Source of the DNA: an uncultured Elusimicrobia bacterium
GTDB lineage: Bacteria; Elusimicrobiota; Elusimicrobia; UBA1565; UBA9628
Direction of reading: 5' to 3'
NCBI GenBank assembly: GCA_903830945.1
Contig: CAIKVT010000055.1
Location: 1-64,000, forward strand
Length of the DNA: 64,000 bases
Below are positions 27,537 through 44,351 of the stretch, piece by piece. The stretch's first letter is position 1. The number at the start of each line of letters is the position of its first letter. The notes under the pieces were generated by a model. That model was not told the origin of the DNA. It was given only the letters and a program-made list of their open reading frames with translations, and searched no databases. Made by a program: the position numbers and the translations under genes.

Positions 27537-28680
27537 AGCGCTGTCCTGGAACGGCTTCAACCAAGTCTTGGAGCTCCAGTTCGAAAAGCGTCTGGGTCAG
27601 GCTGGAGATGTCCAGTCCGGATTCCGCGCCCAACTCAGCGATGGAGCGCGTTTCGGAACCGAGCAATTGTAGGATTTTTTCATGCGCCGGGGCCAGAAGC
27701 GCCGCGGAATGAGGGATCCCTTTCCGCGGTGCCTGGCCCCCTTCCATATGGCCAGACACCGCTGAAACACTCGCTGGAGCATCCGACGGACTGACCTGGC
27801 ATCCCGGCGGAAGTTCCGGCCAGATATCCGCCATGGACCTGACCATCTTGGCGCCCTGACTGATGAGCCGCAGCGGCGCCTCACTGAGCGCCGAGTCGGC
27901 CGGCCCGGGCACGGCGAAGACCTCCCGACCCTGCTGCGCCGCCAGGCGCGCGGTGATCAGCGAGCCGGACTTATCGCGCCCCTCGACCACCACCGTCGCC
28001 CAGCACAGGCCGGCCACGATGCGGTTGCGGCGCGGAAAATGGCCAGGCAACGGCTCGGTGCCCAAGGGGAACTCGCTCATCAGGCAGCCGCCACCGGCGA
28101 CGATCTCCTGGGCCAAGGCCGCGTTCTCCGGAGGATAGATGCGCCCCAGTCCGCTGCCCAAGACCGCCCAGGTCGTCCCCTGGGAGTCCAGCGCGGCGCG
28201 ATGGGCCTCCGTGTCGATGCCGCGCGCCAAACCACTGGTGATGACAAAACGCGCGGATGCCTCCCGGACCAGCTGCCGTGTCATGCGGCGGCCGTAAGGG
28301 GTGGGCTGGCGCGAGCCAACGAAGGCCAGGGCGTCGCGCCCGGCGTCGAGCCGGCCCCAGACATACAACACCAGCGGGGCGTCCGTTATCGAACGCAGCA
28401 GTTCCGGGAACTCAGGCTCGTCCCAGGCCAGGATGCGCAGCCCCAAGTCCTGGGCGCTCTCCCATTCACGCCGGAGGTCAAATCCGTCCAAAGCATCGCG
28501 CAGCCGACGCGCCGCCTCCAGGGCCAAGCCACCGGCCGCAGCGAGCTCCTCAGGGCCAGCCTGGCTCAGCCGCTCCAAGCCGACGCGCCCGACCCACCCG
28601 CGCAGGCGGTCCGGCCCCATGGCGGAAGCGACATTGAGCCGAAGCCAAGCCGCCTGCGCTGCGGTGGGAGCCGGACTCAC
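27517..28680 (-). CDS. dprA: DNA processing protein DprA
   Basis: A 387-residue protein that loads RecA on incoming single strands in natural transformation. N-terminal helical SAM-like part (1-80), then the Rossmann-like core (about 100-290) with FVGSRQPTPYG, ITSGLARGIDTEAH, GSGLGRIYPPEN and FPRRNRIVAGL, and a C-terminal winged-helix part (about 325-387). The gene order dprA-topA-xerC is widespread. With comM (30.2 kb) it suggests competence, although no uptake apparatus except pilT is in the window. Confidence 0.95.
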   Translation of the reverse strand: MSPAPTAAQAAWLRLNVASAMGPDRLRGWVGRVGLERLSQAGPEELAAAGGLALEAARRLRDALDGFDLRREWESAQDLGLRILAWDEPEFPELLRSITDAPLVLYVWGRLDAGRDALAFVGSRQPTPYGRRMTRQLVREASARFVITSGLARGIDTEAHRAALDSQGTTWAVLGSGLGRIYPPENAALAQEIVAGGGCLMSEFPLGTEPLPGHFPRRNRIVAGLCWATVVVEGRDKSGSLITARLAAQQGREVFAVPGPADSALSEAPLRLISQGAKMVRSMADIWPELPPGCQVSPSDAPASVSAVSGHMEGGQAPRKGIPHSAALLAPAHEKILQLLGSETRSIAELGAESGLDISSLTQTLFELELQDLVEAVPGQRYAKKSS

Positions 28681-29144
28681 AACAGCTCCTCGGAAAAGCG
28701 CTCCCGCGGCGGGAGTTCCGCCAAGGTCTCTGGACGGGACTCAAACGGCCGGATGCCGCCGATAGGTCGGATCATCGAAAACGGCGCAGCCGCCCTCAGG
28801 CGATGGACCCCATCGGCGACAGGACCCGGCCGCCGTCCGACGGTCCCGGCTGCGGCCGCGGCTAAGGCATGAACCTCCCGGAAGAGTTCAGCATCCTCCC
28901 AGAGAGCGCTCCATTCCGCGGGGATGCGCCCGGCCGAAACGATGAGTTCCGCGGCGTCAAGCTTGAGCACCTCGGCGATACGCCGCAGCACGGCCTCATC
29001 GGAAGGCGGACTACGCTTGCCGGCGAGGACCTTAGAAAAAAAAGAGGGGTCCAATCCAGCCTCGCGGCACAGACCCCGCAGCGTCAAGCCCCGGCCACGC
29101 AAACCGGTCACCACGCGTGCGGCGAAAGGATCCCTAGAGCCCAT
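28677..29144 (-). CDS. XRE-type helix-turn-helix protein
   Basis: A 155-residue protein. Residues 10-70 form a lambda-repressor-like helix-turn-helix (LTLRGLCREAGLDPSFFSKV and RRIAEVLKLD). The rest has no recognised domain; the C-terminus is Arg/Pro-rich. The ATG at 29144 is chosen because the homologous part begins right after it; the frame is open upstream without similarity. The gene overlaps the dprA start by four bases and the preceding TPR gene by 11 bp, so it may regulate its own dprA operon. Confidence 0.75.
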   Translation of the reverse strand: MGSRDPFAARVVTGLRGRGLTLRGLCREAGLDPSFFSKVLAGKRSPPSDEAVLRRIAEVLKLDAAELIVSAGRIPAEWSALWEDAELFREVHALAAAAAGTVGRRPGPVADGVHRLRAAAPFSMIRPIGGIRPFESRPETLAELPPRERFSEELL

Positions 29145-29526
29145 GGTTATAGTGCAGCAAGTCCCGCCGCTGGCGCATAAGCCCGACATCATGGCCGTCA
29201 GGATACTCATCGATATAGCGGTCCAAGGCCGTCTTAGCCGCAGCCCAGTCATGAACGTACTCCGCCGAATCCTCAAGGTAAAAAAGGCCCCGGGCTACGA
29301 ACTGACCGGTCGGGTAATCCGTCAGCAGCTGCGTAAAAGCCGTCTCGGCCTTGTCGTACTCCTCGCGTTGGTGATAAATGAACCCGATGGTGTAGTTAGC
29401 GCGCGGGGCCCAAGAAGCGCCCTTATGCTGCTCGATGTATTGCAGGCCGGACTCCAGGCTGGCGTTCCGGCTAAGATAGTAATACCCGCCGGCCACGGCC
29501 AGGACGAAGAGGACGTACTTGATCAT
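29134..29526 (-). CDS. Membrane-anchored TPR protein
   Basis: A 130-residue protein. Residues 3-18 are hydrophobic (a signal anchor). The rest has tetratricopeptide-like repeats (YTIGFIYHQREEYDKAETAF; DWAAAKTALDRYIDEYPDG). It probably scaffolds protein contacts at the periplasmic side. It overlaps the next upstream exported-protein gene by four bases and the XRE gene by 11 bp. I cannot name a partner. Confidence 0.7.
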   Translation of the reverse strand: MIKYVLFVLAVAGGYYYLSRNASLESGLQYIEQHKGASWAPRANYTIGFIYHQREEYDKAETAFTQLLTDYPTGQFVARGLFYLEDSAEYVHDWAAAKTALDRYIDEYPDGHDVGLMRQRRDLLHYNHGL

Positions 29527-30158
29527 AGAGGCACCCGCGACAAGAGGTCGGCCGGCGCCACTTCACTGACCGACTTGAGCACGCGCAGGCGCACCCGCCC
29601 CTTTGGAAGAACGGACTCCACCTGCACCACTCCGATGCGCTCCAAATAAAGAGCGTCGGGATCCGCGTCGGCTTCGGTCGCGACACCCCGACGCAGCACA
29701 TAGAGCAAGTCTCCGACTCGAACCGGCGCCACCGATTTCATTCGGCCATAGGCCAGGTCGCCCGGGCCAGGCAGGGCATTCAAGACATGGGCTTTCGTGA
29801 TCTCCCCATCCTTTTTCCAACCCGGCAATGCCCGTCGCCGAGTCACGGACGGCTCGAACCCGCTGGTATCCCGCGGCAGACTGCGCGAAAGAGAATTCCG
29901 GCCGCTTTCCCGGAAGGCCTCGGTGGCAACGAACACCTCGGGCATCAAGTCGGAGAATGGGGCAGCCTCAGACACCAAAGTCGTCTGCGGCCACTCTGTG
30001 TCCCTGCTCTCGGGTGGCGCCGACTCCCCGGCCTGATCGAACGTCGGCGCAGACAGCGAGGGAGCCGCTATTGCCCCCTGGACGCCCAACGCACAGAACA
30101 TGGCCGCAGGCAAACATAGCCAGCCCGAGCGCCACATCCGCTCCAGGATCCGCTTCAT
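29523..30158 (-). CDS. Exported protein of unknown function
   Basis: A 211-residue protein with a signal peptide (basic MKRILERMWRSG, hydrophobic core, cleavage probably after GAIAA near residue 31). The middle is Ser/Pro-rich and disordered. The C-terminal 95 residues seem folded (VRVGDLLYVLRRG; YLERIGVVQVESVLPKGR), a small beta-rich domain reminiscent of cell-surface modules with LysM neighbours. No family is recognised. Four-base overlap with the TPR gene implies coupled expression. Confidence 0.6.
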   Translation of the reverse strand: MKRILERMWRSGWLCLPAAMFCALGVQGAIAAPSLSAPTFDQAGESAPPESRDTEWPQTTLVSEAAPFSDLMPEVFVATEAFRESGRNSLSRSLPRDTSGFEPSVTRRRALPGWKKDGEITKAHVLNALPGPGDLAYGRMKSVAPVRVGDLLYVLRRGVATEADADPDALYLERIGVVQVESVLPKGRVRLRVLKSVSEVAPADLLSRVPL

Positions 30159-30235
30159 GGAACCTCCTTATAAGACTGAAACATTATCACAAAAAATCCG
30201 TCTCTGGCGCGAATCTCGAGCCTGTCTCGAACGAT

Positions 30236-31768
30236 TCATAGCCGCACACGTTCCAGACTCCGATACTGCATGGCCTCGGCCAAATGCGGGGTGCTTACCT
30301 TGAGCTGACCGTCCAAATCCGCGATGGTTCGGGCGACTCTCAGCACCCGGTCCAGACTGCGGGCCGAAAGGCTGAACTTGGCTGCCGCCTCAGCCAAAAG
30401 CTTGAAGCCGGCGGCATCCAAAGCACAGGTGCGTCGCAAATCCCTCGGTGGAATATGGGCGTTGACTAGGAAACCTTCCAAGGCGAAGCGTTCCCGCTGC
30501 ACACGCCGCGCCTTCTCCACCCGGGCCAGGATCCGGCTGGAAGTCTCTTCCTGCGCCTGGGAACCGGAACCAGCCCACTGCTCAAAAGGAACAGGTGCAA
30601 CCTCAACCTGGATATCGATACGGTCCAGGAGGGGTCCGGAGAGCCGGGCCAAATACTTGGCCACGGAGAGCGGCGTGCAGGCGCATGCTCGGACGGGATG
30701 CCCGCGATAGCCGCAAGGACACAAGTTGCAGGCTGCCACAAGAGAGAACCTCGCCGGGTACTCCACCGTCTCCCGCGCTCGGGCGATCACCACTTTGCCA
30801 TCTTCCAGTGGCTGGCGCAAAGACTCCAAAGCCAGCCGGTTGAACTCGGCCAGCTCGTCCAGGAATAAGACTCCGCCATGAGCCAAGGACACTTCTCCGG
30901 GCCGAGCCAGATGTCCGCCGCCGATCAAGGCCACGTGCGAAGCGCCGTGATGAGGCGCGCGGAAAGGGCGCCGGCTGATGAGGCCGGCTCGGGGCCGGTC
31001 CTGGGAGATGGAATGAATACGCGTCACTTCCATGGCTTCCTCGGGAGCCAGTCCCGGAAGGATCGTGGGAACCCGTCGAGCCAGCATGGACTTGCCCGAG
31101 CCCGGCGGCCCGACCAAGAGGACGTGATGCCCGCCGGCGGCCGCGATCTCCAGGGCTCGCTTGGCCAGATGTTGTCCCCGAACATCATGGAAGTCCACGT
31201 CCATCTCCACATCAGCCTCAGCGACGGCGCCGGACGACGCGCTCAGAGAAGCCTGCGGCACACCGGCCAAAAAATCAGCCACTTCGCGCAAGGTGACGGC
31301 TCCGTAAGCGGTGAGGCCCGTAGCCGCGGCTTCGACAGCGTTGTCTAAAGGAACGATCATTCCGCTGAAGCCCTGGTCCTTGGCTTTAGCCGCCATGGCC
31401 AGGACTCCGCGCACGGGCCTAAGACCTCCATCCAAGGCCAGCTCCCCCGCGAAACAGTAACGCTGCGTCCATTCCCCTCCGGGGAGCTGGCCGGAGGCGC
31501 AGAGCACGGCCAAGGCCATGGGCAGGTCGAAATGGGAGCCTTGCTTGCGTGACTGGGCCGGAGCCAGGTTGACCGTGATGCGGCGTTGCGGGAATTGATA
31601 GCCTGAATTGCGCACGGCCGCGCACACCCGGTCACGCGACTCACGCACCGCGGTGTCGGGCAGGCCTACTATCGTGAAGCCAGGCAGGCCGTTGGCTAGG
31701 TCCAACTCCACCGTGACCGGGTAGCCCTCCACCCCGCGCAAACCAAAAGAACAGATTCTGGATAGCAT
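30236..31768 (-). CDS. comM: ComM/YifB-type magnesium-chelatase-like AAA+ ATPase
   Basis: A 510-residue protein. The N-terminal ChlI-like domain (start MLSRICSFGLRG, with GLPGFTIVGLPD) is followed by the AAA+ domain (Walker A GPPGSGKSM, Walker B VLFLDELAEF, Cys-rich CNLCPCGYRG) and a C-terminal helical domain. ComM is a hexameric helicase for branch migration in natural transformation. The ATG at 31768 matches the family N-terminus and follows AGAGAGG; the frame upstream is open without similarity. TATATA-like sequence lies 5' of it. Confidence 0.93.
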   Translation of the reverse strand: MLSRICSFGLRGVEGYPVTVELDLANGLPGFTIVGLPDTAVRESRDRVCAAVRNSGYQFPQRRITVNLAPAQSRKQGSHFDLPMALAVLCASGQLPGGEWTQRYCFAGELALDGGLRPVRGVLAMAAKAKDQGFSGMIVPLDNAVEAAATGLTAYGAVTLREVADFLAGVPQASLSASSGAVAEADVEMDVDFHDVRGQHLAKRALEIAAAGGHHVLLVGPPGSGKSMLARRVPTILPGLAPEEAMEVTRIHSISQDRPRAGLISRRPFRAPHHGASHVALIGGGHLARPGEVSLAHGGVLFLDELAEFNRLALESLRQPLEDGKVVIARARETVEYPARFSLVAACNLCPCGYRGHPVRACACTPLSVAKYLARLSGPLLDRIDIQVEVAPVPFEQWAGSGSQAQEETSSRILARVEKARRVQRERFALEGFLVNAHIPPRDLRRTCALDAAGFKLLAEAAAKFSLSARSLDRVLRVARTIADLDGQLKVSTPHLAEAMQYRSLERVRL

Positions 31769-31865
31769 GGCCCTCTCTATATATACGATTGAGGGCGCGA
31801 TTTGTTCCATCAGCATACTCGCGCGGCAAGACCGAAAGGTCGCAATGGAGCACGACGGGCCGGCG

Positions 31866-33056
31866 TTATTTCCCCCGCGTGGTCTCAATCTCGACGTAAC
31901 GATAGTCCGTTTCAACCGATCGGACATTAAAGGAATAGCCGGGCAGGCGCATCAACAAGGCGGCCAGCTCCTCCGGGGAAAGCTTCTCCACGAAGACCTC
32001 CAGCCGGATCATCTCCGGCGTCAAGGCCACCACGGCCGCCCCGGCCACTCCGGAAAGTCCACGCAGGTCCGCCATGAAACGCCGGATGCCGCCCAATTCG
32101 CTGAACCCCACAACCCCCAATGCAAGCACGGAGCGCTCGCGGAATCGGCCCGAGAACTCCGCTGCCAACTGATCAGCCGCCAGTTGGCCCGCGTCCTCCA
32201 GAGCCTTGCCCGCGGCGGCTTCCGTAGCCAAATCAACAGCCGTCGCCTCCACGTCCACATGGGCCACAAGGCCCCCGGTCCCTGCCCAGAAAACACGCGC
32301 CTCGACCCGAGCACGGAAGGGCCGCAATCCGAAGAACCGCTCATCCGCGAGAGCCTGCGCCTGAGCGGTCCCGCTGACCGCCACTAGCGCGGCCGCAGCC
32401 CGGGCCGCCACCAGGGCCTCCTCTAACGTGCCGGTCTTCTGATATCTCGCATTTTGACGGTCGCTGAAATCCTCGACCTCGTAGCCCCGCGAGGAAAGCC
32501 CTCGCCGCATCGCATCCGAAGCCCGGCCGACTTCGCGGCCGGCCCCGGACCCAGTCTCCTTAAGCGATATCAACAGACGCGGAGTGCCATAGACGCCCTC
32601 AGACCGCACCAGGCCCAAGCCGCAGAGGTCCTTGCGGAGCTTGTCGGCAGCGATCAGCGCCAGAAGCCGGACCTGGGTGACGCCTGCGTCGCTGTCTCTG
32701 GACAGACCAGAAGAAGGCAGCAACTGATATTTACGGACATAGACGCGCGGAGAAGACAGGACCTTTTCCTCAAGTACCGCCGAGGAGGCGGTCCGGGTCG
32801 CCGAAGAGATGAAGAGTTCGAGCACATCTTCCACGGCCCGCCGCTCCGCAGCCGTGACGGCGCCGGTCGTCCTGCCCTCGCCGGCGAGAGCAGGGGCAAC
32901 CGCCCCCGACTCGACGACAAGGCCATGGTCGCCCAGGCCGGATTGGAGCCCCACACAACCGCATAAGAGCAGCGCACCCGCGGCCACGACAGCCAAGGGA
33001 CCTCCGTCCCTAAAAAGCGGGCGTTCTCCTCTCCTGGAAAGGACGCCGACCCGCAT
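31866..33056 (-). CDS. Outer-membrane-type lipoprotein of unknown function
   Basis: A 396-residue protein with a lipobox LLCGC near residue 33 after a long, basic N-region, so a lipoprotein. The mature part has repeated alternating beta-helix segments (SPRVYVRKYQLLPSSG; LLALIAADKLRKDL; PRLLISLKET; HVDVEATAVDL) that resemble the FlgT/LPP20 type of assembly proteins; this is a weak impression. The start ATG at 33056 overlaps the kinase stop as TGATG, and GTG/TTG alternatives just upstream are less likely. It is the last gene of the pilT-DnaA-like-kinase run. Confidence 0.65.
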   Translation of the reverse strand: MRVGVLSRRGERPLFRDGGPLAVVAAGALLLCGCVGLQSGLGDHGLVVESGAVAPALAGEGRTTGAVTAAERRAVEDVLELFISSATRTASSAVLEEKVLSSPRVYVRKYQLLPSSGLSRDSDAGVTQVRLLALIAADKLRKDLCGLGLVRSEGVYGTPRLLISLKETGSGAGREVGRASDAMRRGLSSRGYEVEDFSDRQNARYQKTGTLEEALVAARAAAALVAVSGTAQAQALADERFFGLRPFRARVEARVFWAGTGGLVAHVDVEATAVDLATEAAAGKALEDAGQLAADQLAAEFSGRFRERSVLALGVVGFSELGGIRRFMADLRGLSGVAGAAVVALTPEMIRLEVFVEKLSPEELAALLMRLPGYSFNVRSVETDYRYVEIETTRGK

Positions 33057-35005
33057 CAATCCCCCGTGGCCTCCGGCTGAAGCGGCAAAGCGAAGCAGAA
33101 GCGCGTCCCCTGGCCCAGCTCAGACTGGAACCAGATGCGCCCGCCGTGCCGTGAGACCACCTCCTTGACGATAGTCAGCCCCAGCCCCGTGCCGGGAGCT
33201 GAAACCTCAGAACGATTGCGGGCCCGAAAAAACTTCTCGAAGATGCGGCCCTGGTCATCCGGGTGGATGCCGATGCCGTTGTCCGCCACGCAAACCTCCA
33301 CGGTCTCACCCTGGCGCACGAGGCTCACGACCACACGCCCCCCGGGCCGAGTGAATTTAACCGCGTTGGAAATCAGATTATCCACGGCCAGGCCCAGCCA
33401 TTTAAAATCGCCCAGGATATCGGGGACCGGAGCCGCCAGCTCCACCGAGATGGTCTTGCCCGTTGCCCCAGCCTGGAGGCTCAGGTTGGCGACGCTGGCG
33501 CGCACCACCTGTTCCAAAGCCACGGCGGCCTTCTCCATCTCCATATTGGCCTCCAGACGCGAACAGTCCAATAGGTCCGAGACGAGACTGATCAGCCGCG
33601 CCACCTGCGTCTGGGCGATCTTCAAGAACTCCATCTGTTGCGCGCTCATAGGCCCGGTCTCTCCGCCTATCAGCAAGCTCAAGAAACCCGACAACGACGT
33701 CAGCGGCGTCTTGAACTCATGGCTGACCGTGGAAACGAACTCGCTCTTCATCCGATTGAGGGCGGCCAATTGTTCCGCCACCTTGGAAAGTTTGCGGTTC
33801 AAAATGGCAGTTTCCACGATGACCGCGGCCTCTTCCGCGATGATGGTCATCATCTCGACCTGCTCGCCGCTGAAATAGTCCTTCTGAAAGCTGCCCACGC
33901 GCATGACGCCGATGCAGCGCTCCTCCACCAGGAGCGGGATGACTATCAAGGAATGCACCTTCCAAAGCTTAACGTAATGCGCGATCACATTAGGATCGTT
34001 CTGCGCGTCGCCGGTCAGGAAAGGTCGGCAGGTCCGGTAGACCCGCACCGAGGAAGCGTCGTCGCGAGACAGCGGCATGCGATAGAACTGCTCCTCCCCA
34101 TCTAGGCCATAGGCCCCCGGCTGAGTGACCAACTCTTGGGACTCCTCGTCGAAGAGCAAGAAGGCGACCAGGTCCGCCTGCAGATACTTGGCCACGATGG
34201 AGACGATGGCAGCCAGCGAATGCGTCTTGGCCCCCCTTGAGATCAAGGCCTCGGCCACGTCGTGGAGTGTGCGGACTTCTCGAGCTTTCTCGATAAGCCG
34301 GGTGTGGGTATGGGTGAGCTCCTCGATAGTCGAAGTCAGTCCGCCCTGGAGGCGTTCGCTGGCCTGGGAGAGCCGCCCCAGATCGTCGATGATCTCGGCC
34401 CAGGATGTCGCCATGCGACGAACGATGTCCAGAAACGGCTCGGCGGCCTGCAGCCCCGCGCCCTGGGGGTCGCGGTCGACCGCGGCCAGAACGCCTGCGG
34501 AGCTGCCGGGCCGTCCCCAAGGGATCAGACGCAGGACGCAAAAGCCATGATCCGCCAGCCGGCGCAACAGGGGATCAGCCTCGGAATCCCGCGCGCCGGC
34601 GATGGTCCTGGTGACGCCCCCCTCTTCCAGCGCCTGACGCAAAAGGGCGGAACTGAAGTTCCAGGCGCCCTGGCCCAGTTCGGACCAGACCAGGCCCCGG
34701 GCCGCGACCATGACTCCTTCGTCGGTGCCGCTGCCGCGGCCGACCCAGCACAAGGCAAGTTCCGGCAGGCGCTGATGCAGGCAGACCACGCAGCGCTGTC
34801 CCATCTCGTTAAGGGCATGCGGCGCGGTGCTGGTGGAAATCTGCAGTTCCAGCACCTCCAGGGAGAAGCGTCGCAAGTCGCCGGCCCGCTCCCGGACCAA
34901 GCGCAGTTCCCGATCCAGAGGCAGCAGCCGGCGGAACACGAAAAACCAGTATGCCGCGAAGCCCGCGACCAGCGCGGCAAGAGCCGGCATCAGGCAGGAA
35001 CTCAT
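33056..35005 (-). CDS. GAF-domain sensor histidine kinase
   Basis: A 649-residue kinase. It starts MSSCLMPALAAL with one membrane anchor (residues 5-25), then a GAF-like part (about 60-200), a coiled coil with a HAMP-like break, and a second GAF domain (about 270-400, with SLIVIPLLVEERCIGVMRVG). HisKA with His429 (VSHEFKTPL) and HATPase_c (DNGIGI; GTGLGLTIV) follow. The ATG at 35005 overlaps the stop of the DnaA-like gene (ATGA), which decides this start. No response regulator is adjacent; the partner may be elsewhere or the DnaA-like protein may be the target (inference). Confidence 0.88.
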   Translation of the reverse strand: MSSCLMPALAALVAGFAAYWFFVFRRLLPLDRELRLVRERAGDLRRFSLEVLELQISTSTAPHALNEMGQRCVVCLHQRLPELALCWVGRGSGTDEGVMVAARGLVWSELGQGAWNFSSALLRQALEEGGVTRTIAGARDSEADPLLRRLADHGFCVLRLIPWGRPGSSAGVLAAVDRDPQGAGLQAAEPFLDIVRRMATSWAEIIDDLGRLSQASERLQGGLTSTIEELTHTHTRLIEKAREVRTLHDVAEALISRGAKTHSLAAIVSIVAKYLQADLVAFLLFDEESQELVTQPGAYGLDGEEQFYRMPLSRDDASSVRVYRTCRPFLTGDAQNDPNVIAHYVKLWKVHSLIVIPLLVEERCIGVMRVGSFQKDYFSGEQVEMMTIIAEEAAVIVETAILNRKLSKVAEQLAALNRMKSEFVSTVSHEFKTPLTSLSGFLSLLIGGETGPMSAQQMEFLKIAQTQVARLISLVSDLLDCSRLEANMEMEKAAVALEQVVRASVANLSLQAGATGKTISVELAAPVPDILGDFKWLGLAVDNLISNAVKFTRPGGRVVVSLVRQGETVEVCVADNGIGIHPDDQGRIFEKFFRARNRSEVSAPGTGLGLTIVKEVVSRHGGRIWFQSELGQGTRFCFALPLQPEATGD

Positions 35006-36765
35006 TTCCTGAAGAACACCTGGAAGTCCAGATGCGCGGCCAAGAACGGCCGCGTGGTGGTGGTCTCGGTGAACGGGATCCAGCCCGCGGCCAGGCCGAA
35101 ACTGTCGAGGATATGCCGGACGGCATGGACGAACTCGCCCTCCCGCGCGGCCAGCCGGGCGTCGCGCGGCGGGCCGAGGACCAAGGCCGCCTGGGCGTTG
35201 GACCTCTGGCACGACTCGCCGATCTGGGAAGGCACTCCGAGAGGTTGTTCCGTATCGTAGGATTCGCAGAGCACATGCCGATAGGTCTGCGTTGCGCCGA
35301 ATTCGGCACCGACCTGGTAGAATCGGGCCACCAGCCAGGTCAACATGGCGTCCTGGCCCCGGGGACAGAACAGGGCCAGGTTGATGGCATCAGGCTTAGG
35401 AGCCGGCGGCGCGAACCGCCGACTCGCCTCGAGCTCACTCTGGTTGGGCAGATCGATCTGACTGACCTTAGCTCCCGCGCTGAGCAGATCCCCGATCATC
35501 TCGTCGGTCCCGGGCGACGCGCCTTTGGCGCGATAAAGCTCGCTCAACACCCCCCAACGCAACACCAGCCGCGAAAACTCGCCCGGATTGGCGCCCAGCC
35601 GCTCATGGAGCTTCTTGATCTCTGCGCCCGAGATCTGGGATCCGACGCGCTCCGCGAAGACGCCGAACATCTCCTCTTGGACAGTCGGATTTGCCACTTT
35701 CATATCCACGGCCCAACCCTTGGCCAAGGATATCTTAAGCGCCTCTTCCAGCGCACCCAAAGTCCGGGGCGGATAGACCGAGGTGAGGACCACCTGGAGA
35801 TTGCGCGAGAAGAACCCCCCGAACAGCTTGGCCAGTGTCGCCTGGTTCTTCTCCGTGATAGCCAGAAGATGCACATCGTCGACCAGCAGGGCCTTGGCCC
35901 CCGCGACGAGCTTGTCGATCTCGGCGAGGCGGCCCTCGGCCAGGGCGCAGCTGACCGCGTAGGCCAAAGCCGCGCCCGTGGTGACGATGACCGACCCCGC
36001 CTCCCAGTTCTTTTTGAAGGCCGCGCTGATGGAATGCAAGAGATGCGTCTTACCCACCCCGGGGGCGCCGTAGACGAACAAGGGATTGTACATGGTCCCG
36101 GGCGCGCCGATCACGGACGTGGCCGCTGCGTGCGCAAAACGATTATAAGCGCCCACCAGCAAGCTGTCGAAAGTGAGCTTGGGCTCCGAGCAAGACTGCA
36201 ATCCCCACAGCGGCTTGGGTGCGGAAGCGACCGCCCGGCCGGGAGGCGTCGCTGGCGGCGGCACGGATGCGACGCCATCCTGACGCCCCGGCGCACCAGG
36301 AAGAGCGCCAGGCGTCATGGACAACGTCTCCGGGAAGACCGGCGCAGTCAGCGTGGGCGGGGTAAGCACGGGCCCAGAGACCATGGGTTCCGCAATAGGC
36401 GACGCGGCAGGCGCCGCCTGCGTCCCACTGAAAAGCCTCGCGGCCGGAACACTGGGGACCTCCCGCACCATGAATGGAATAACGGGCAGCGTTGGAGCCG
36501 GGGCAGCCAAGGCCAGGTCGCCCTGAGCGCCCGGGGCAATCTCCCCAAGATATCGGGCGACCTTGTCCACCCCGGTCTTGGTGATCCCGTGCAGGTAGAT
36601 GCTGATATTGAACCCCTCGGGATGGTCTGTCTTGAGCGGTCGCCCGCACATCGCCCCGAACTTCTTGACGATCTGGCTGACGTGCTTCATCTCACCCTTA
36701 ATCAACAGGACATGACGGGCCGGGTCATGGGGACCGGGGTCGGGACGCAGGGACCACTTCGTCAT
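35002..36765 (-). CDS. DnaA-like AAA+ ATPase without a recognisable DnaA DNA-binding domain
   Basis: A 587-residue protein. Residues 1-80 form a small unrecognised domain; 85-185 are Pro/Ala-rich linker. Residues 198-410 are a DnaA-type AAA+ domain: it opens LTFDSLLVGAYNRFAHAAA and YNPLFVYG, Walker A GAPGVGKTH (233-241), Walker B LLVDDVH (293-299), and a lid with GANPGEFSRLV. DnaA domain IV (the helix-turn-helix with D-H-T/S) is not visible; instead residues 455-587 form a different domain (ALFCPRGQDAMLTWLVARFY, VLGPPRDARL). It overlaps both neighbours by ATGA. It is thus not the replication initiator; role in motility control or polar positioning is only a guess. Confidence 0.75.
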   Translation of the reverse strand: MTKWSLRPDPGPHDPARHVLLIKGEMKHVSQIVKKFGAMCGRPLKTDHPEGFNISIYLHGITKTGVDKVARYLGEIAPGAQGDLALAAPAPTLPVIPFMVREVPSVPAARLFSGTQAAPAASPIAEPMVSGPVLTPPTLTAPVFPETLSMTPGALPGAPGRQDGVASVPPPATPPGRAVASAPKPLWGLQSCSEPKLTFDSLLVGAYNRFAHAAATSVIGAPGTMYNPLFVYGAPGVGKTHLLHSISAAFKKNWEAGSVIVTTGAALAYAVSCALAEGRLAEIDKLVAGAKALLVDDVHLLAITEKNQATLAKLFGGFFSRNLQVVLTSVYPPRTLGALEEALKISLAKGWAVDMKVANPTVQEEMFGVFAERVGSQISGAEIKKLHERLGANPGEFSRLVLRWGVLSELYRAKGASPGTDEMIGDLLSAGAKVSQIDLPNQSELEASRRFAPPAPKPDAINLALFCPRGQDAMLTWLVARFYQVGAEFGATQTYRHVLCESYDTEQPLGVPSQIGESCQRSNAQAALVLGPPRDARLAAREGEFVHAVRHILDSFGLAAGWIPFTETTTTRPFLAAHLDFQVFFRK

Positions 36766-37535
36766 AAAGCCTCGGGGGACAGCAGCATGACGTCGACTAC
36801 GATGTCGATGGCCACCGACTTCTTCCCCACGTCGAGCGGCGCCACCGCCCGGAACATGACGCCACCACCCGCGAGAGCCTCGCCCAATTCGCGCAGCCTC
36901 GTCTCGGAGAGCCCTTCTACTATACCCAGAACGGCCACGGCTTTGGCCTGGAGGACCGGGGCCAGGACATCCTTACCCTCGCATTCTTCCGTGATCGCCT
37001 GATAGAGGACCCGCCGCAAGAACAGCGGCTTCTTGGGCACGGTCTGGGCGGTCTGATCGAGCAGTTTGGCCAGGGCCTCCCTCTCGGCTTCGAACTTGCC
37101 AAGGTAAATGAACGCCACGCGCCGCACCTGGTCCTTGCCGAGCTTCTCAGGCATCGGGACATCAGGCAGCGCATCCGCGGGCGGCAAGCCACGCTGGGGT
37201 GGACGAACCGGGGGCACCGTCGGCGCAGGGATGGACGCGGGGATGAAGTCCGCAGGCCGGGCAGCGCCCGTCTTCGCACCACCTTCAAGATCGAGCTCCA
37301 TGGGCGGCTTACCGGAAAAAACGGCCGGGACTGCGAGCTTGGGCGGCAGCTTGAACGCCGGCGGAACAAAAGGCGCCGAAGCCGGAGATTTAGTGGGCAG
37401 CGCCTCAACCTTAGGCGGCGATACGGGAGCGGAGGACGGCTGCCCTCCGCCCAAGTCGGACAGGATGGCGTCGAGATCGCTGAGTATCTCCTGGACATCC
37501 TTGTCGGGCGGGCCCTCGCGTTTCTCTTCAGCCAT
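36762..37535 (-). CDS. Pro-rich linker protein of the pilT cluster
   Basis: A 257-residue protein. Residues 8-30 form a short acidic helix (VQEILSDLDAILSDLGGG); 30-145 are a Pro/Ala-rich linker; 150-257 are a folded domain (RRVAFIYLGKFEAEREALAK; AKAVAVLGIVEGLSETRL; SVAIDIVVDVMLL). The start at 37535 lies 16 bp after the pilT stop and the end overlaps the DnaA-like start by ATGA. The helix-linker-domain plan and place suggest an adaptor between pilT and the DnaA-like ATPase. No family recognised. Confidence 0.65.
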   Translation of the reverse strand: MAEEKREGPPDKDVQEILSDLDAILSDLGGGQPSSAPVSPPKVEALPTKSPASAPFVPPAFKLPPKLAVPAVFSGKPPMELDLEGGAKTGAARPADFIPASIPAPTVPPVRPPQRGLPPADALPDVPMPEKLGKDQVRRVAFIYLGKFEAEREALAKLLDQTAQTVPKKPLFLRRVLYQAITEECEGKDVLAPVLQAKAVAVLGIVEGLSETRLRELGEALAGGGVMFRAVAPLDVGKKSVAIDIVVDVMLLSPEAL

Positions 37536-37551: not shown

Positions 37552-38640
37552 TCATCCCTCCACGCCAGCGGAGAGGCCTTGCAGCCTGAGCGCCACGTCC
37601 TGAGGGGTCGTCGAGTTCTCCAAGACCGACTTCTCATCGATCATGCCTTCGCGGAAGAGACGGATGAGATCCTGATCGAACGAGTGCATGCCGTAGTAGG
37701 ACCCGCCCGCCATGACCTTATAGATGTCGGCGGACTTACCCTCCAGGATCTGCCCTCGGACCATATGGCTGCAGATGAGGATCTCCGTAGCGGGGTAACG
37801 GGTCTTACCATCCTTGGCCAGGACCAAGCGCTGGGCCACGATCCCCTTGAGCGTGTTGGCCAGTTGCTGGCGGACCTGCTCGTGCTGATGCGAGGGGTAG
37901 GTGTCGACGATGCGGCTCATGGTCTGGACTGCGTCCAGGGTATGCACCGTCGAAAGGACCAGGTGTCCGGTCTCGGCGGCATTAAGCGCAGCCTGCATGG
38001 TTTCGAGGTCGCGCATCTCTCCGATGACGACCACGTCCGGGTCCTGGCGCAGGACGTGCTTCAAGGCGCTGGAGAAGGACTTTGTGTCCCGGCCCACCTC
38101 GCGCTGAACGATCGAGCACTTATTGTCCGAATGGTAGTACTCGATGGGGTCCTCGATGGTAATGACCCGGTAAGGGCAGGTCTCGTTGAGATAATTGAGG
38201 AAGCTATTCATTGTCGTGGTCTTCCCCGCGCCGGTAATGCCGGCGAAGAGGACAAGCCCGCGGCTTTCCTGAGCCAACTTCTTCAGGGCTTCCGCCGGGA
38301 GGCCGAGTTCTTCGAAGGAGCGCAGCTTCATTGGGATGACGCGCAGGGTCAACGAAAGTGAACCTCGCTGCATGCAGACGTTGACCCGAAAGCGGGACAC
38401 CCCGTCAAGACTATAAGCCAGGTCGAGCTCCTGTTCGGCCGCGAAGGACCGCTTCTGCTCTTCGCTCATAAGCTGGTCCGCCATGGACTGAATATCCAGA
38501 GGAGCGGTCTTCTGGAGATTGGCGGCCATGACCATGGCGCCATGCAGCCGGAAGGCCGGGAAGGAATCCGCCTTGAAATGGATATCGGAGATGTCTTTCT
38601 GGACCATCAGTTTTAAAAGATTCTTGATATCGACAGCCAT
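37552..38640 (-). CDS. pilT: PilT-type twitching-motility ATPase
   Basis: A 362-residue hexameric ATPase that retracts type IV pili. The N-terminal PAS-like domain (1-105) is followed by the RecA-like domain with Walker A GITGAGKT (134-141), the Asp box VITIEDPIEY, Walker B IGEMRD (206-211) and His box TGHLVLSTVHT (224-234). Length and order fit PilT, though close paralogues (PilU) cannot be excluded. Its ATG lies only 4 bp after the stop of the preceding microcompartment-region gene. No pilin or PilB/PilC gene is in the window. Confidence 0.92.
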   Translation of the reverse strand: MAVDIKNLLKLMVQKDISDIHFKADSFPAFRLHGAMVMAANLQKTAPLDIQSMADQLMSEEQKRSFAAEQELDLAYSLDGVSRFRVNVCMQRGSLSLTLRVIPMKLRSFEELGLPAEALKKLAQESRGLVLFAGITGAGKTTTMNSFLNYLNETCPYRVITIEDPIEYYHSDNKCSIVQREVGRDTKSFSSALKHVLRQDPDVVVIGEMRDLETMQAALNAAETGHLVLSTVHTLDAVQTMSRIVDTYPSHQHEQVRQQLANTLKGIVAQRLVLAKDGKTRYPATEILICSHMVRGQILEGKSADIYKVMAGGSYYGMHSFDQDLIRLFREGMIDEKSVLENSTTPQDVALRLQGLSAGVEG

Positions 38641-38644: not shown

Positions 38645-38920
38645 TCACTCCCGGATGATCTTGATGCGGCGCAGCGTCAACCAGTCCTCCGCCAGAGGGC
38701 TGATGATCGAATCCACAGGTATTCTAAGCTCTTGCGAGTTGACAGTCAATTGTTTCTTTATATCATACTCAGAGAGGAATTTTCGACCCCGGATATCCTC
38801 ATCCAGCCGCCTGCGCGGCGGCGCGCAAGCGCCGCCGCCGGGCATGGACATGGGCATGGACGCGGCTGAAACATCAAGCCGCTCCAAGATGATATCGATG
38901 ATGTCGTCTCTAGTCAGCAT
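38645..38920 (-). CDS. Small microcompartment-associated protein with EutT-N-like motif
   Basis: A 91-residue protein. The N-terminal MLTRDDIIDIILERL is an amphipathic helix like a microcompartment encapsulation peptide, followed by a Met/Pro/Gly linker (MPMSMPGGG). The C-terminal half reads FLSEYDIKKQL, then IPVDSIISPLAEDWL and IKIIRE. This resembles the short N-terminal segment of EutT-type proteins, where a F-[IL]-[TS]-E start is followed by a [LIV]-P-x-D-S-x-[LI]-[TS]-P-x-A pattern (recalled, not searched). It has no catalytic domain. It is 84 bp after the BMC-H gene and 4 bp before pilT. It may be a shell adaptor. Confidence 0.65.
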   Translation of the reverse strand: MLTRDDIIDIILERLDVSAASMPMSMPGGGACAPPRRRLDEDIRGRKFLSEYDIKKQLTVNSQELRIPVDSIISPLAEDWLTLRRIKIIRE

Positions 38921-39004: not shown

Positions 39005-39304
39005 CTATTTGTGGATCTTGATCGAGATCTGCTCGAGATACTTCTCGATATCGTCATGCGGCCGCGGGATGACATGGATGGCGACCATCTCACCCACTTT
39101 TTGAGCCGCCGCCGCACCGGCGTCCACGGCCGCGCGCACCGCGCCGACCTCGCCGCGACACAGGGTCGTCACCAGGCCCGAGCCGATTTTCTCGTAACCG
39201 ATCATATGCACCTTGGCCGCCTTGGCCATAGCGTCAGACGCCTCGATCATGCCCACAAAACCCTTCGTCTCCACCATCCCCAGAGCTTCCTTTATCTCCG
39301 CCAT
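39005..39304 (-). CDS. BMC-H microcompartment shell protein
   Basis: A 99-residue single-BMC-domain protein that forms hexamers tiling the flat facets of the shell. Signatures are [19 protein letters not shown], a pore loop EKIGSGLVT and [23 protein letters not shown] before the ATG is a strong ribosome-binding site. The C-terminus extends beyond the core to ISIKIHK. It is one of two hexamer genes in the operon. Confidence 0.96.
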
Positions 39305-39386
39305 GCTTCCTCCCTGGCCGCGTCAACGGCCAGGCCCTGACGCCCTATGGACATGCGTCGGCGTCATAGGCCTCGCGAAATCCGAT

Positions 39387-39674
39387 CTACTGCTCGTCGC
39401 CCGGCATCTCCGGCGGCTGCTCCAACATCGCGTTGCACCGACTGCAGCGCTTGGCCGGCCCATAGGTGCGCACGCACTCGTCTTTCTCAGGCCACCACTC
39501 CTCGAAATACATCTCCGCCCGCTTCTGACAGCGCAGGCAGTAGCGCTCCATGCCCGCTCCGCAGCAGGGACAGAACTTCGGGAACTCCTCGCCGCGCAGA
39601 TGCGTCAAGGTCCCGCAGGCCCCGCACTGGATGTCGAGCTTGAGCTGATATTTGACCGGCTTGTTCTTGGCCAT
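39387..39674 (-). CDS. Small zinc-ribbon protein inside the BMC operon
   Basis: A 95-residue protein with four Cys pairs: CGAC, CPCC, CLRC and CSRC. Two zinc ribbons or one treble-clef plus ribbon are likely. It also has aromatic FEEWWPEKDEC. There is no hydrophobic segment or signal. It lies 2 bp after deoC and 82 bp before the BMC-H gene, so it belongs to the operon, but I know no zinc-ribbon component of a microcompartment. Roles as regulator, assembly factor or metal store are all open. Confidence 0.65.
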   Translation of the reverse strand: MAKNKPVKYQLKLDIQCGACGTLTHLRGEEFPKFCPCCGAGMERYCLRCQKRAEMYFEEWWPEKDECVRTYGPAKRCSRCNAMLEQPPEMPGDEQ

Positions 39675-39676
39675 GC

Positions 39677-40702
39677 TCAGTAGCCCTTGCCTGCCGAGGC
39701 CTGCCCGGACACGATGGCGACCGAAGCCGAAGTCCCCAAACGGGTGGCCCCCGCCTGGATCATGGCGTCCGCCGTCTTGGTGTCCCGGATGCCGCCTGAG
39801 GCCTTGACGCCCATCAGCGGCCCCACGGTCTGGCGCATGAGCCGCACATCCTCGACGGTAGCCCCGCCGCCGCCGAAACCCGTGGAGGTCTTGACGAAAT
39901 CCGCGCCGGCTTTTTTGGACATGATGCAGGCGCGCACCTTCTCCTCGTCGGAAAGCAGCGAGGTCTCCAGGATGACCTTGAGCACCTTGCCGCGGGTGGC
40001 CTCGCGCACGGCCTTAATATCATCATAGACCACGACGTCGTTACCCGACTTAAGGGCCCCGACGTTAATAACCATGTCGATCTCCTCGGCGCCGTTGGCG
40101 ATGGCGTCGCGCGCCTCCACGGCCTTGACCGTGGACGTCGTGGAGCCCAGCGGAAAACCGATCACGGTGCAGACCTTCACCCCCGATCCCTGCAGAAGTT
40201 GGGCGCTGTAGTCGACGTATGACGGGTTGATGCAGACCGAAGCAAAACAGTACTTGCGCGCCTCCTCGCAGAGCTTGGCCACTTCGGCCTGGGTGGCGTT
40301 GGGCTTGAGCAAGGTATGGTCCACCATACGCGCCACGGACGAGACGTGTGCCGTAGGTTGGCAGACCGCGATGCGGTCGGCGCCCAGGGCCTTCAAAGTG
40401 CTGGCGGTCGCACCGGCAAAGGACGCGCAGCGGCCGCAAGCGTTGCCCTCGCATTCAACAGGTCCCGGCCCGTCGCCCCCGCAAGGCAGACGTTTTCCTG
40501 CCCCGGAGGAAGCCGGCTTGCCGGGCGTCCATCCCGGGGACGAGAAGACCTTTCCGGCCGAGCCGACCGTGGTGAGAGTGGGGCTCTCGGGCCTCTTGGG
40601 AGCAGGCTCGCAGCATGCCGGGCTGCCGGACTTTAAATAGCCCTTCCCAGCCAAAGTCCTGACCACTTCCTCGACGATCTTGCGAAGGTCCTGTTCGTTC
40701 AT
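39677..40702 (-). CDS. deoC: Deoxyribose-phosphate aldolase with N-terminal encapsulation extension
   Basis: A 341-residue enzyme that splits 2-deoxyribose 5-phosphate to glyceraldehyde 3-phosphate and acetaldehyde. The aldolase core is residues 125-341 with the catalytic set Asp209 ([10 protein letters not shown]), Schiff-base Lys271 (FVKTSTG) and Lys300 (GVKASGGIR). About 120 extra residues precede it: an amphipathic helix [20 protein letters not shown] like an encapsulation peptide, a Gly/Pro/Ser linker, then a Cys-containing segment (Cys84, Cys89, Cys92 in C-x4-C-x2-C). Normal DeoC is about 220-260 residues. Placement between shell genes supports lumen targeting and defines the operon as sugar-phosphate type. 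Confidence 0.94.
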
Positions 40703-40711
40703 GATATTTCC

Positions 40712-41008
40712 TCAGGTGTACTTCTTGACCTTGCCGCCGGATGAAACGGTATCCACGACCGCGCACACCACCGTGCGCACGGGCGCGGCCTCATCTTGGA
40801 TGATGCTGCGCGCCGATCCGCCCTCGTCTACCACCAACACGATGCTGCCGGGGCCTGACTGCACGCCCCCGTCCATGGCCATAACCACATCACCGACGCT
40901 CTCGCCGGTCACAGGATGGATGGGCCGAACCAGAAGCAATCGACGGCCCTTGAGGGACGGGTGCTTGCGGGTCCCCCAGACATTGCCCACAACCTCGCCG
41001 ATGAACAT
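40712..41008 (-). CDS. BMC-P (EutN/CcmL) vertex shell protein 1
   Basis: A 98-residue pentamer-forming protein capping shell vertices. It starts MFIGEVVGNVWGTRKHPSLKG, continues LLLVRPIH, VVMAMDGGVQSGPGSIVLV and ends CAVVDTVSSGG, all typical of the EutN/CcmL fold. One of three paralogues here; it is 2 bp from the next BMC-P gene. Confidence 0.96.
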   Translation of the reverse strand: MFIGEVVGNVWGTRKHPSLKGRRLLLVRPIHPVTGESVGDVVMAMDGGVQSGPGSIVLVVDEGGSARSIIQDEAAPVRTVVCAVVDTVSSGGKVKKYT

Positions 41009-41010
41009 GT

Positions 41011-41289
41011 CTAGTTCCTGAAATCCCTGATCTGGTGGCCTTCCACGATAGCCACAACAGCCGCGTCCACGGGCGGCAAGTCCTGGAAAGCGACCGCGGC
41101 CTCGCGGGATGCGACCCAGAAGACCTTCTCCGAGGCGCCGGCGCCCACCGCATCGGCCGCCACGACCGGATCGCCCAGCGGCGACTCGTCATCCCATCGC
41201 AGGGGTTGGATGAGGAGCAAAGTCTTGCCGTCTATGGCCGGATCCTGCCGCGCGCAGAAAACCCGGCCCACCACTCTTGCCAGCTTCAC
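41011..41289 (-). CDS. BMC-P (EutN/CcmL) vertex shell protein 2
   Basis: A 92-residue EutN/CcmL family protein (MKLARVVGRVFCARQDPAID, LLLIQPLRW, AADAVGAGASEKVFWV). The C-terminus (AIVEGHQIRDFRN) lacks the usual VDxV end, so it is the most divergent of the three. Its start overlaps the stop of the RpiB-like gene by four bases. Confidence 0.93.
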   Translation of the reverse strand: MKLARVVGRVFCARQDPAIDGKTLLLIQPLRWDDESPLGDPVVAADAVGAGASEKVFWVASREAAVAFQDLPPVDAAVVAIVEGHQIRDFRN

Positions 41290-41735
41290 TTGGAGTATTT
41301 CTTCTCTATGCCCGCGATCTTGGCCAGGCGCCCTTCGTGCCGGCCGCCCTCGAACTTAGTCCCGAAGAAGACATTAAGGATCTCCGCCAGGATCAACTCA
41401 CCGTGGGTCTTGCCTCCCAGGCAGAGCACATTGGCGTCATCATGCGCCGCGGCGAAGCGCGCCGAGACCGTATCGTAAGCCGCGACCGCGCGCACGCCCG
41501 GCACCTTGTTGGCGGCCAGGGCCACGGCACCGCCGAAGCCGTCGATAAGAACGCCTTTCTGGCAATCTCCGCGGGTCACGGCCTCGGCCACAAGCTGGGC
41601 CACGTCCGGGTAGTCCACGCTCTCGGGTGAGTGGCAGCCGAAATCCGAGACTTCGTGCCCGAGCTTCTGGATGGTCTTCTTGACGAATTCCTTGGCGGCG
41701 AAGCCGCCGTGGTCCGAGCCGATGATTATCTTCAT
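41286..41735 (-). CDS. RpiB/LacAB-family sugar-phosphate isomerase with altered catalytic Cys
   Basis: A 149-residue RpiB-fold protein. Conserved phosphate/sugar-binding residues are Asp8 and His9 (IIIGSDHGG), His98 (AAAHDDANVL) and Arg132-His133 (FEGGRHEGR). The catalytic Cys of E. coli-type RpiB (Cys66, in ICGTG) is replaced by Asp65 in LIDGFGG, and the alternative Glu of the mycobacterial type (four to seven residues on) is Val here. It is therefore either an isomerase with different chemistry (ribose 5-phosphate or another pentose/hexose phosphate) or a binding protein. ATGA overlap with the BMC-T gene upstream. Confidence 0.85.
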   Translation of the reverse strand: MKIIIGSDHGGFAAKEFVKKTIQKLGHEVSDFGCHSPESVDYPDVAQLVAEAVTRGDCQKGVLIDGFGGAVALAANKVPGVRAVAAYDTVSARFAAAHDDANVLCLGGKTHGELILAEILNVFFGTKFEGGRHEGRLAKIAGIEKKYSK

Positions 41736-42283
41736 TTGCCCACCGTTTCCAAAAGTTGTTCATCCGCCCGCGCTATCACCACATAGGAAACCAGCCCTGC
41801 CTCGGGCACTGCGCTGATGCCGGCTGCGACAGCGGAACGGACGGCCCCGACCTCTCCCGTCATGGTCACATAGCCCTTGCCACCGCCCACCGTGGTCCGG
41901 GTCTCGATAAGGGAGACGGCTGCCGCCTTAGCCGCGGCGTCGGCCGCGCGCACCGCGGCAATGGCGTCCTTGGTCTCAATGATGCCCAAAGCATCCAGTT
42001 CTTTGACCGGGACGCGCTGGTCCAAGGTCTCTAGGACTTGGTTGTGCACGTTGCGGATGAGGACCTCGTCGATGAGGTCCTGACCCAGGAGTTGACGTCC
42101 GGCGCGCAAGGAGCTTTCCACCTCGCCTACCGGCCCGGTGATGATGATGATGTACTTGCCTCGAGCGATGACCCCGGCGCGCGCAAGCTTGACCGAGGCC
42201 ATCTTGCACATGGCGTCGGAAGCCTCGATACCCTTGGCGATGGATGCCGTCTCCAGAAGTCCTATGGCGATGTTGGCCAGCAT
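41732..42283 (-). CDS. BMC-T tandem-domain shell protein
   Basis: A 183-residue protein with two BMC domains (about residues 1-92 and 96-183) that forms pseudohexameric trimers. Domain 1 has AIGLLETASIAKGIEASDAM and domain 2 ALGIIETKDAIAAVRAADAA with GEVGAVRSAVAAG. No Cys ligand for an Fe-S cluster in the pore is evident, unlike PduT. The ATG at 42283 follows GAGGTG at five bases; a GTG six bases upstream is possible. Confidence 0.93.
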   Translation of the reverse strand: MLANIAIGLLETASIAKGIEASDAMCKMASVKLARAGVIARGKYIIIITGPVGEVESSLRAGRQLLGQDLIDEVLIRNVHNQVLETLDQRVPVKELDALGIIETKDAIAAVRAADAAAKAAAVSLIETRTTVGGGKGYVTMTGEVGAVRSAVAAGISAVPEAGLVSYVVIARADEQLLETVGK

Positions 42284-42290
42284 GTTCACC

Positions 42291-43730: not shown

Positions 43731-44028
43731 CCCTGTCCTCGGACTTCTTGAAGACGACCTTGCCGCCCTGCTCCACCGTGTCGACGATCGCAAAGATGAC
43801 CGCGTCCACGGGATTACCCTGGGTGCGCGAGGTCTGGCGGGCGCTGGAACCCTGCACGATCAGGACCAGTTCCTTCTCGCCGGCCCCCACCGAGTCCACG
43901 GCCACGATGGGGCTGCCTTTGGCGGCACCGACGAGGTCCACGGGCTGCACCAAAAGGAGTTTGCACCCGACGAGCTTCTCATCTTTCTGAGTGCAGACGA
44001 CGTTTCCCGTCACGCGTGCGAAGATCAA
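43720..44028 (-). CDS. BMC-P (EutN/CcmL) vertex shell protein 3
   Basis: A 102-residue EutN/CcmL protein (MIFARVTGNVVCTQKDEKLV, LLLVQPVDL, AVDSVGAGEKELVLIV, FAIVDTVEQGG). It resembles the first pentamer protein more than the second. A third BMC-P gene in one operon suggests mixed or interchangeable vertices. Confidence 0.96.
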   Translation of the reverse strand: MIFARVTGNVVCTQKDEKLVGCKLLLVQPVDLVGAAKGSPIVAVDSVGAGEKELVLIVQGSSARQTSRTQGNPVDAVIFAIVDTVEQGGKVVFKKSEDRDAG

Positions 44029-44339: not shown

Positions 44340-44351
44340 TGTGCATTCCTC

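What the first reader, a model, noticed from the sequence alone, without database searches (positions are those of the whole stretch)
35002..36765. DnaA-like ATPase with a novel C-terminal domain, coupled to pilT and a kinase
The AAA+ core is clearly of DnaA type, with intact Walker motifs, but the DNA-binding domain IV is absent and replaced by an unrecognised 130-residue domain. The N-terminus is a different small domain plus Pro/Ala linker. It is translationally coupled to a GAF histidine kinase downstream and to the Pro-rich protein upstream. This looks like a DnaA fold recruited for signalling or motility.
Basis: partly seen in the sequence, partly recalled or inferred. Interest (0 to 1): 0.72.

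Follow-up and report, generated by a model that had tools for sequence, protein, structure and literature searches.

The report
DnaA-derived ATPase beside microcompartment genes
Most bacteria sampled in one little-studied phylum carry a second, altered copy of the protein that starts DNA replication, with its DNA-gripping end replaced by a new domain and encoded beside sensor-kinase, pilus-motor and microcompartment genes, which suggests an ancient reuse of the replication ATPase for signalling or cell organisation.

Summary
On the minus strand (36765->35002) lies a 587-aa protein: small N-terminal domain, disordered Pro/Ala linker, DnaA ATPase domain (Pfam E 1.9e-30), and a C-terminal domain without helix-turn-helix. 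It is not the initiator: the same genome holds a complete DnaA. The start/stop overlaps with both neighbours are real.

New findings. (1) The "unrecognised" C-domain is shared with the upstream Pro-rich protein (hhalign E 8e-6; 7e-9 with wider sampling) and is predicted as (beta-alpha)4. (2) It occurs in 202 of 295 Elusimicrobiota genomes searched; the ATPase domains form one clade apart from DnaA (support 0.997). (3) Early-branching members keep the DnaA arginine finger and sensor-II arginine; the window's group has mostly lost them but keeps Walker A/B. (4) Neighbours: a GAF histidine kinase (62/79 loci) and deoxyribose-catabolism genes, often with a whole SPU microcompartment (50/62). PilT is a dedicated paralogue, missing from about half the loci.

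Best reading: a DnaA paralogue turned ATP-binding adaptor in a signalling module tied to a DNA-sugar microcompartment locus. The biochemical role is inferred, not shown. Presence outside the phylum could not be tested properly.

The parts
35002..36765 (-). DnaA-like ATPase ('DnaL', working label), 587 aa
   Evidence: ORF; Bac_DnaA E 1.9e-30; relatives
36526..36765 (-). N-terminal domain (aa 1-80), predicted beta-beta-alpha-beta-alpha; invariant W4, L20, R42, P43; no Pfam, NCBIfam or PDB hit
   Evidence: alignment A2
36196..36510 (-). Pro/Ala-rich disordered linker (aa 86-190), very variable in length between relatives
   Evidence: pLDDT about 30
35707..36183 (-). DnaA domain III ATPase core (aa 195-353)
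   Evidence: one search gives the same coordinates
36043..36069 (-). Walker A GAPGVGKTH; lysine 62/62 in this group
35866..35889 (-). Walker B LLVDDVHL; first D 61/62, second D 60/62 in this group
35698..35739 (-). Box VII (LKISLAKGWAVDMK): the DnaA arginine-finger position is S here; R in 9/62 of this group, 25/26 early-branching members, 21/21 canonical DnaA
35554..35589 (-). Sensor II region (NPGEFSRLVLRW): the sensor-II arginine position is G here; R in 3/62 of this group, 24/24 early-branching members, 20/21 canonical DnaA
35005..35430 (-). C-terminal domain (aa 446-587), predicted (beta-alpha)4, in place of domain IV; homologous to the C-domain of the upstream Pro-rich protein
36762..37535 (-). 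Pro-rich protein ('ProR', working label), 257 aa
37452..37505 (-). ProR N-terminal helix motif (DKDVQEILSDLDAILSDL), conserved across families, including f13 where no shell gene lies near the locus
36765..37160 (-). ProR C-domain (aa 126-257), same family as the DnaL C-domain
33056..35005 (-). Histidine kinase, 649 aa: apparent N-terminal transmembrane helix (read from the sequence), GAF, HisKA, HATPase_c; its ATG overlaps the DnaL stop
37552..38640 (-). PilT-family ATPase, dedicated locus paralogue (TIGR01420, 423 bits against a cut-off of 319)
38645..38920 (-). 91-aa protein, weak C-terminal similarity to TIGR02536 (ethanolamine-utilisation family, E 5e-5, below cut-off); present at all 34 well-sampled loci that have the adjacent shell gene
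39005..44351 (-). SPU-type microcompartment locus: shell genes (39005-39304, 41732-42289, c. 44043-44351), deoC 39677-40702, rpiB 41286-41735, aldehyde dehydrogenase c. 42291-43793 (the last by reading the sequence)
   Evidence: definition of SPU
27517..33059 (-). Downstream genes: 397-aa lipoprotein-like protein (31866-33059), Mg-chelatase-like ComM (30236-31927), dprA-like gene (27517-28680)
   Evidence: dprA and ComM names rest partly on sequence reading

Best explanation
The gene is an ancient non-initiator paralogue of dnaA in Elusimicrobiota. A DnaA domain III sits between a small N-terminal domain and a C-terminal (beta-alpha)4 domain. The C-domain (and, in two relatives of another class, the N-domain with it) also occurs without the ATPase in neighbouring proteins, so the ATPase was probably inserted into an existing two-domain scaffold, and origin binding was lost. 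Most likely mechanism, inferred: it is an ATP-binding adaptor. ATP binding changes which partners it holds; it pairs with ProR through the shared C-domain; the co-translated, apparently membrane-anchored GAF kinase supplies or receives the signal; where present, the dedicated PilT-type ATPase is the motor or effector. Early-branching forms, which keep the arginine finger and sensor II, could still assemble ATP-dependent multimers as DnaA does; the window's form, which has lost both, more likely acts as a switch or scaffold. The physiological output is probably linked to use of DNA-derived sugar by the SPU microcompartment encoded just upstream. Shown by sequence: architecture, homology, conservation, gene order. 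Inferred: every biochemical step.
For: Own genome has a separate complete DnaA. All 18 other gene-bearing genomes tested with the DnaA profile have two or more DnaA-type genes, and in a single-contig 1,643,562-bp genome dnaA is near base 889 while this gene is at 163 kb. One clade of ATPase domains apart from canonical DnaA (support 0.997). C-domain in 202/295 phylum genomes. Shared C-domain with ProR (E 8e-6; E 7e-9); N+C proteins without ATPase in two genomes. Conserved Walker A/B with loss of arginine finger and sensor II. Kinase directly downstream at 62/79 loci; deoC, rpiB or shell gene upstream at 50/62; 91-aa protein at 34/34 shell-bearing loci. In 16 genomes tested the N-domain and ProR were found only at this locus.
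Against: No partner is constant: PilT is absent at 30/62 loci and the kinase at 17/79, and family f12 (including the 1.64-Mb genome) keeps the protein without kinase, ProR or PilT. Family f13 and genus g6 keep it with no deoC, rpiB or shell gene nearby. One genome keeps microcompartment genes, the 91-aa protein and a kinase but lacks it (G048). Gene order alone does not prove interaction. No response regulator is adjacent in the window.
Confidence: 0.5

Rival explanations
1. It regulates replication, as Hda or other DnaA-interacting AAA+ proteins do: its DnaA-type ATPase domain joins or caps DnaA multimers and blocks initiation when the kinase or the metabolic state demands.
For: The domain is derived from DnaA, and early-branching members keep the residues needed to stack on DnaA. 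Hda is likewise a DnaA ATPase domain without domain IV and is among the structural matches.
Against: The Hda equivalog model scores 43 bits against a cut-off of 194.8. The window's group has lost the arginine finger and sensor II. Neighbours are catabolic, kinase and PilT genes. Some near-complete genomes do without it (f15).
Confidence: 0.2
2. It works in DNA uptake or processing: an ATPase handling single-stranded DNA at a locus with PilT, ComM and DprA, feeding imported DNA to recombination or to the deoxyribose pathway.
For: comM and dprA lie downstream at 32 and 31 of 55 well-sampled loci. DnaA is solved bound to single-stranded DNA (3r8f). SPU microcompartments are proposed to use DNA degradation products (PMC8217296).
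Against: The comM/dprA linkage is absent from the other classes examined. The PilT here is a diverged paralogue. DnaA's C-terminal DNA-binding domain is gone.
Confidence: 0.15
3. The neighbourhood is a conserved block of genes, and this gene is functionally unrelated to its neighbours.
For: The neighbours come and go while the gene stays.
Against: Start/stop overlaps with ProR and the kinase, domain sharing with ProR, and repeated adjacency to the same kinase type and to deoC/rpiB across many families and more than one class.
Confidence: 0.1

Closest known systems
DnaA, bacterial replication initiator (Pfam PF00308/PF08299/PF11638; TIGR00362)
   Same: AAA+ domain III is homologous, with intact Walker A and B; early-branching relatives also keep arginine finger, sensor I and sensor II.
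   Different: No domain I, no domain IV; new N- and C-domains; a second, complete DnaA exists in the genome; in the window's group the arginine finger and sensor II are lost.
Hda, DnaA regulatory inactivator (TIGR03420)
   Same: A DnaA-type ATPase domain without domain IV.
   Different: 43 bits against a cut-off of 194.8; carries extra domains and a linker that Hda lacks; different gene neighbours.
SPU-type bacterial microcompartment loci (Sutter 2021, PMC8217296; Axen 2014, PMC4207490)
   Same: The adjacent locus has deoC, rpiB and BMC shell genes as described for SPU.
   Different: A term search of the main texts of both papers found no mention of PilT; no kinase or DnaA-type ATPase was reported for SPU in the passages read.
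McdAB-type microcompartment positioning (review PMC13052382)
   Same: A dedicated ATPase plus partner beside microcompartment genes is a possible analogy.
   Different: [quoted passage not shown] no homology is claimed or was tested.

Membership tests
DnaA replication initiator | DnaA domain III AAA+ ATPase with Walker A and B | tested here: met
   PF00308 E 1.9e-30; Walker residues conserved
DnaA replication initiator | Domain IV helix-turn-helix (PF08299) | tested here: not met
   No hit at E<=0.1 in DnaL or in three relatives; control DnaA of the same genome E 6.5e-26; C-domain model is (beta-alpha)4
DnaA replication initiator | Domain I (PF11638) | tested here: not met
   No hit; control E 6.7e-12
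DnaA replication initiator | Box VII arginine finger and sensor-II arginine | tested here: not met
   S and G in the window protein; retained in early-branching relatives
DnaA replication initiator | Full-length equivalog score (TIGR00362) | tested here: not met
   118.5 bits against cut-off 343.9
DnaA replication initiator | Is the initiator of its genome | tested here: not met
   Separate canonical DnaA with all domains on contig C69; origin function itself is not testable here
Hda | Equivalog score TIGR03420 | tested here: not met
   43 bits against cut-off 194.8
Hda | Sliding-clamp-binding motif at the N-terminus | not tested
   Known to me from the Hda literature; not searched for here
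PilT/PilU family (neighbouring gene) | TIGR01420 above cut-off | tested here: met
   423.3 bits against 319.1
Type IV pilus motility system | The locus drives pilus retraction | not testable with these tools
   Needs genetics; the PilT here is only 42-44% identical to the other PilT-like genes listed in this genome
SPU microcompartment (neighbouring locus) | deoC and rpiB with BMC shell genes | tested here: met
   TIGR00126 298 bits and NF004051 153 bits, both above cut-off; PF00936 matches

The most novel reading that the evidence does not exclude
The DnaA-derived ATPase, ProR and the dedicated PilT-type ATPase form an ATP-driven machine, under control of the GAF kinase, that assembles or positions the SPU microcompartment: a replication-initiator fold and a pilus-motor fold reused together as organelle machinery, dating back to early Elusimicrobiota.
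Probability: 0.13. Interest if true: 0.88.

Novelty: new variant of a known kind. Interest (0 to 1): 0.62.

Why it matters
The DnaA relatives known to me (DnaA, Hda, DnaC/IstB types) work in DNA replication or transposition. Here a DnaA paralogue has kept its ATP-binding core, lost origin recognition and, in one large group, its assembly residues, and is found in most genomes sampled from the phylum, including 1.2-1.8-Mb genomes. That offers an evolutionary series (canonical DnaA; early-branching paralogue with all ATPase residues; derived paralogue with Walker motifs only) for asking what an initiator ATPase can do away from an origin. The repeated pairing with a kinase, a private PilT and a DNA-sugar microcompartment also gives a testable lead on how microcompartments are controlled in mostly uncultured bacteria.

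Tried and rejected
Domain IV hidden in the C-terminus: rejected by Pfam with a positive control and by two AlphaFold runs. C-domain as a phosphoreceiver: considered because of the kinase, but the alignment shows no acidic pair after strand 1; the only invariant residue is an aspartate near the C-terminus. A known fold family for the C-domain: profile search of PDB sequences found nothing convincing; Foldseek gave only generic alpha/beta matches (B12-binding domain, lumazine synthase, TM about 0.4-0.6) on a model of pLDDT 66, so none is claimed. A known family for the N-domain: none. ProR helix as a microcompartment encapsulation peptide: rejected as its main role because it is kept in f13, where no shell gene lies near the locus. 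Loss of basic residues for ssDNA binding in the window's group: measured and not supported. Consistent co-loss of PilT and ProR: not seen. My first residue counts counted some genomes twice and were redone on distinct genomes. Literature searches in the open library found no description of the protein or of PilT/DnaA at such loci. No plasmid match for the C-domain.
Full report
WHAT IS THERE. The ORF lies on the minus strand, 36765 down to 35002, 587 aa. Pfam places a DnaA ATPase domain at aa 195-353 (E 1.9e-30) and nothing else above its cut-off. By sequence the five PDB matches are all DnaA; by predicted structure the best match is B. subtilis DnaA domain III. Domains I and IV are not detected, whereas the canonical DnaA of the same genome scores E 6.7e-12 and 6.5e-26 for these. 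The gene overlaps both neighbours by ATGA: the upstream Pro-rich protein at 36762-36765 and the downstream histidine kinase at 35002-35005.

ORGANISM AND INITIATOR. The close relatives found in the public genome collection are all Elusimicrobia MAGs. The window's genome has three matches to the DnaA family: a full DnaA on another contig (E 1e-66), this protein, and a 267-aa frame that I take to be DnaC/IstB-like. Of 20 further genomes searched with the DnaA profile, the 18 that carry this gene all have a second DnaA-type gene of 450-482 aa elsewhere; the two of family f15, which lack it, have one. Eighteen canonical DnaA sequences taken from that search show no C-domain match. In a one-contig genome of 1,643,562 bases, which by its size I take to be Elusimicrobium minutum (from memory, not verified), dnaA lies near base 889 and this gene at 163 kb. 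It is therefore not the replication initiator.

THE C-TERMINAL DOMAIN. Profiles of 46 DnaL C-domains (A1) and 30 ProR C-domains (A3) align end to end by hhalign: probability 84%, E 8e-6 over 118 columns. With 108 DnaL rows from across the phylum (88 distinct, since some genomes were fetched twice) this rose to 95.8% and E 7e-9. The 'unrecognised' domain is thus shared by DnaL and the Pro-rich protein upstream. In two genomes of another class (L142, L149) a further protein between the two has the N-domain and C-domain but no ATPase, and ProR there also carries a weaker N-domain match. The simplest reading is that a DnaA ATPase domain was inserted into an N-C scaffold protein. Foldseek finds generic alpha/beta matches only. 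No helix-turn-helix is predicted.

DISTRIBUTION AND DESCENT. The C-domain profile matched 202 of 295 genomes of the phylum, normally once per genome, including 1.2-1.8-Mb genomes of family f12. In 16 genomes tested, the N-domain and ProR were found only at this locus. A FastTree tree of ATPase domains separates DnaL from canonical DnaA of the same phylum, each side monophyletic (0.997 and 0.992). Other phyla could not be tested: the one broad genome scan used a single protein and so reaches close relatives only.

ATPASE RESIDUES. Counts over 62 sequences of the window's group, 26 early-branching and 21 canonical DnaA sequences, each from a distinct genome except one second copy in G207. Walker A lysine: 62/62, 24/24, 21/21. 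First Walker B aspartate: 61/62, 25/26, 21/21. Aspartate of the sensor I motif: 1/62, 25/26, 21/21. Box VII arginine: 9/62, 25/26, 21/21. Sensor-II arginine: 3/62, 24/24, 20/21. So early-branching forms look like full DnaA ATPases, while the window's group retains nucleotide binding but has largely lost the residues through which DnaA subunits act on each other's ATP. The two DnaL groups were defined by which loci they came from, guided by the tree, before counting.

NEIGHBOURS. Over 87 loci, one per genome (counts): of 79 with at least 1.5 kb downstream, 62 have the kinase immediately after. Of 62 with at least 7 kb upstream, 50 have deoC, rpiB or the shell gene upstream, 34 the shell gene, 32 the locus PilT and 35 ProR; all 34 with the shell gene have the 91-aa protein between. 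Some loci of other classes read rpiB-deoC-pilT-DnaL-kinase with no shell gene, and in one a single-domain response regulator follows the kinase. comM and dprA follow in about three fifths of loci with at least 8 kb downstream, but not in the other classes examined. Family f13 and genus g6 have no deoC, rpiB or shell gene nearby; f12 lacks kinase, PilT and ProR. The loci are related by descent, so these are counts, not probabilities.

PILT. The locus PilT passes the PilT-family cut-off. Its apparent orthologues are 52-85% identical, whereas the other PilT-like genes listed for the window's genome are 42-44%. Genomes lacking the locus PilT still hold other PilTs. It is a specialised paralogue, so adjacency does not by itself imply pilus motility.

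MICROCOMPARTMENT. deoC, rpiB and BMC shell genes upstream match the SPU type, which Sutter et al. propose metabolises DNA degradation products (PMC8217296). Term searches of that paper and of Axen et al. (PMC4207490) found no mention of PilT, and the passages read report no such kinase or DnaA-type ATPase at SPU loci. Supplements were not available to me.

MECHANISM. Shown: architecture, homology, conservation and gene order. Inferred: an ATP-binding adaptor that pairs with ProR by the shared domain and links the GAF kinase to an effector, the PilT-type ATPase where present. Replication control (Hda-like) and DNA uptake are live rivals, set out above. I put the adaptor reading at 0.5; the identity statement (non-initiator DnaA paralogue with both ends swapped) is close to certain.

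Noticed in passing
window 39005-44351: SPU-type microcompartment locus on the minus strand; deoC and the aldehyde dehydrogenase both begin with short amphipathic helices that look like encapsulation peptides.
   Followed up: partly
window 37452-37505: ProR begins with a conserved helix motif (xILSDLxxIL) kept across families, even where no microcompartment gene is nearby; it looks like a docking helix for an unknown partner.
   Followed up: partly
L142:6275-7351 and L149:5513-6346: Proteins with the DnaL N-domain and C-domain but no ATPase, encoded between ProR and DnaL.
   Followed up: yes
L120, L118, L128, L040: Family f12 members are mostly 900-1625 aa with very long low-complexity linkers, and the kinase, ProR and PilT are missing beside them.
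   Followed up: partly
window 31866-33059: A 397-aa protein with a lipoprotein-like N-terminus and no Pfam match follows the kinase in many genomes; the label 'csgG' in my scripts is only a nickname.
   Followed up: no
L092 (genome G048): Microcompartment genes, the 91-aa protein and a kinase are present, but the DnaA-like gene is missing between them.
   Followed up: partly
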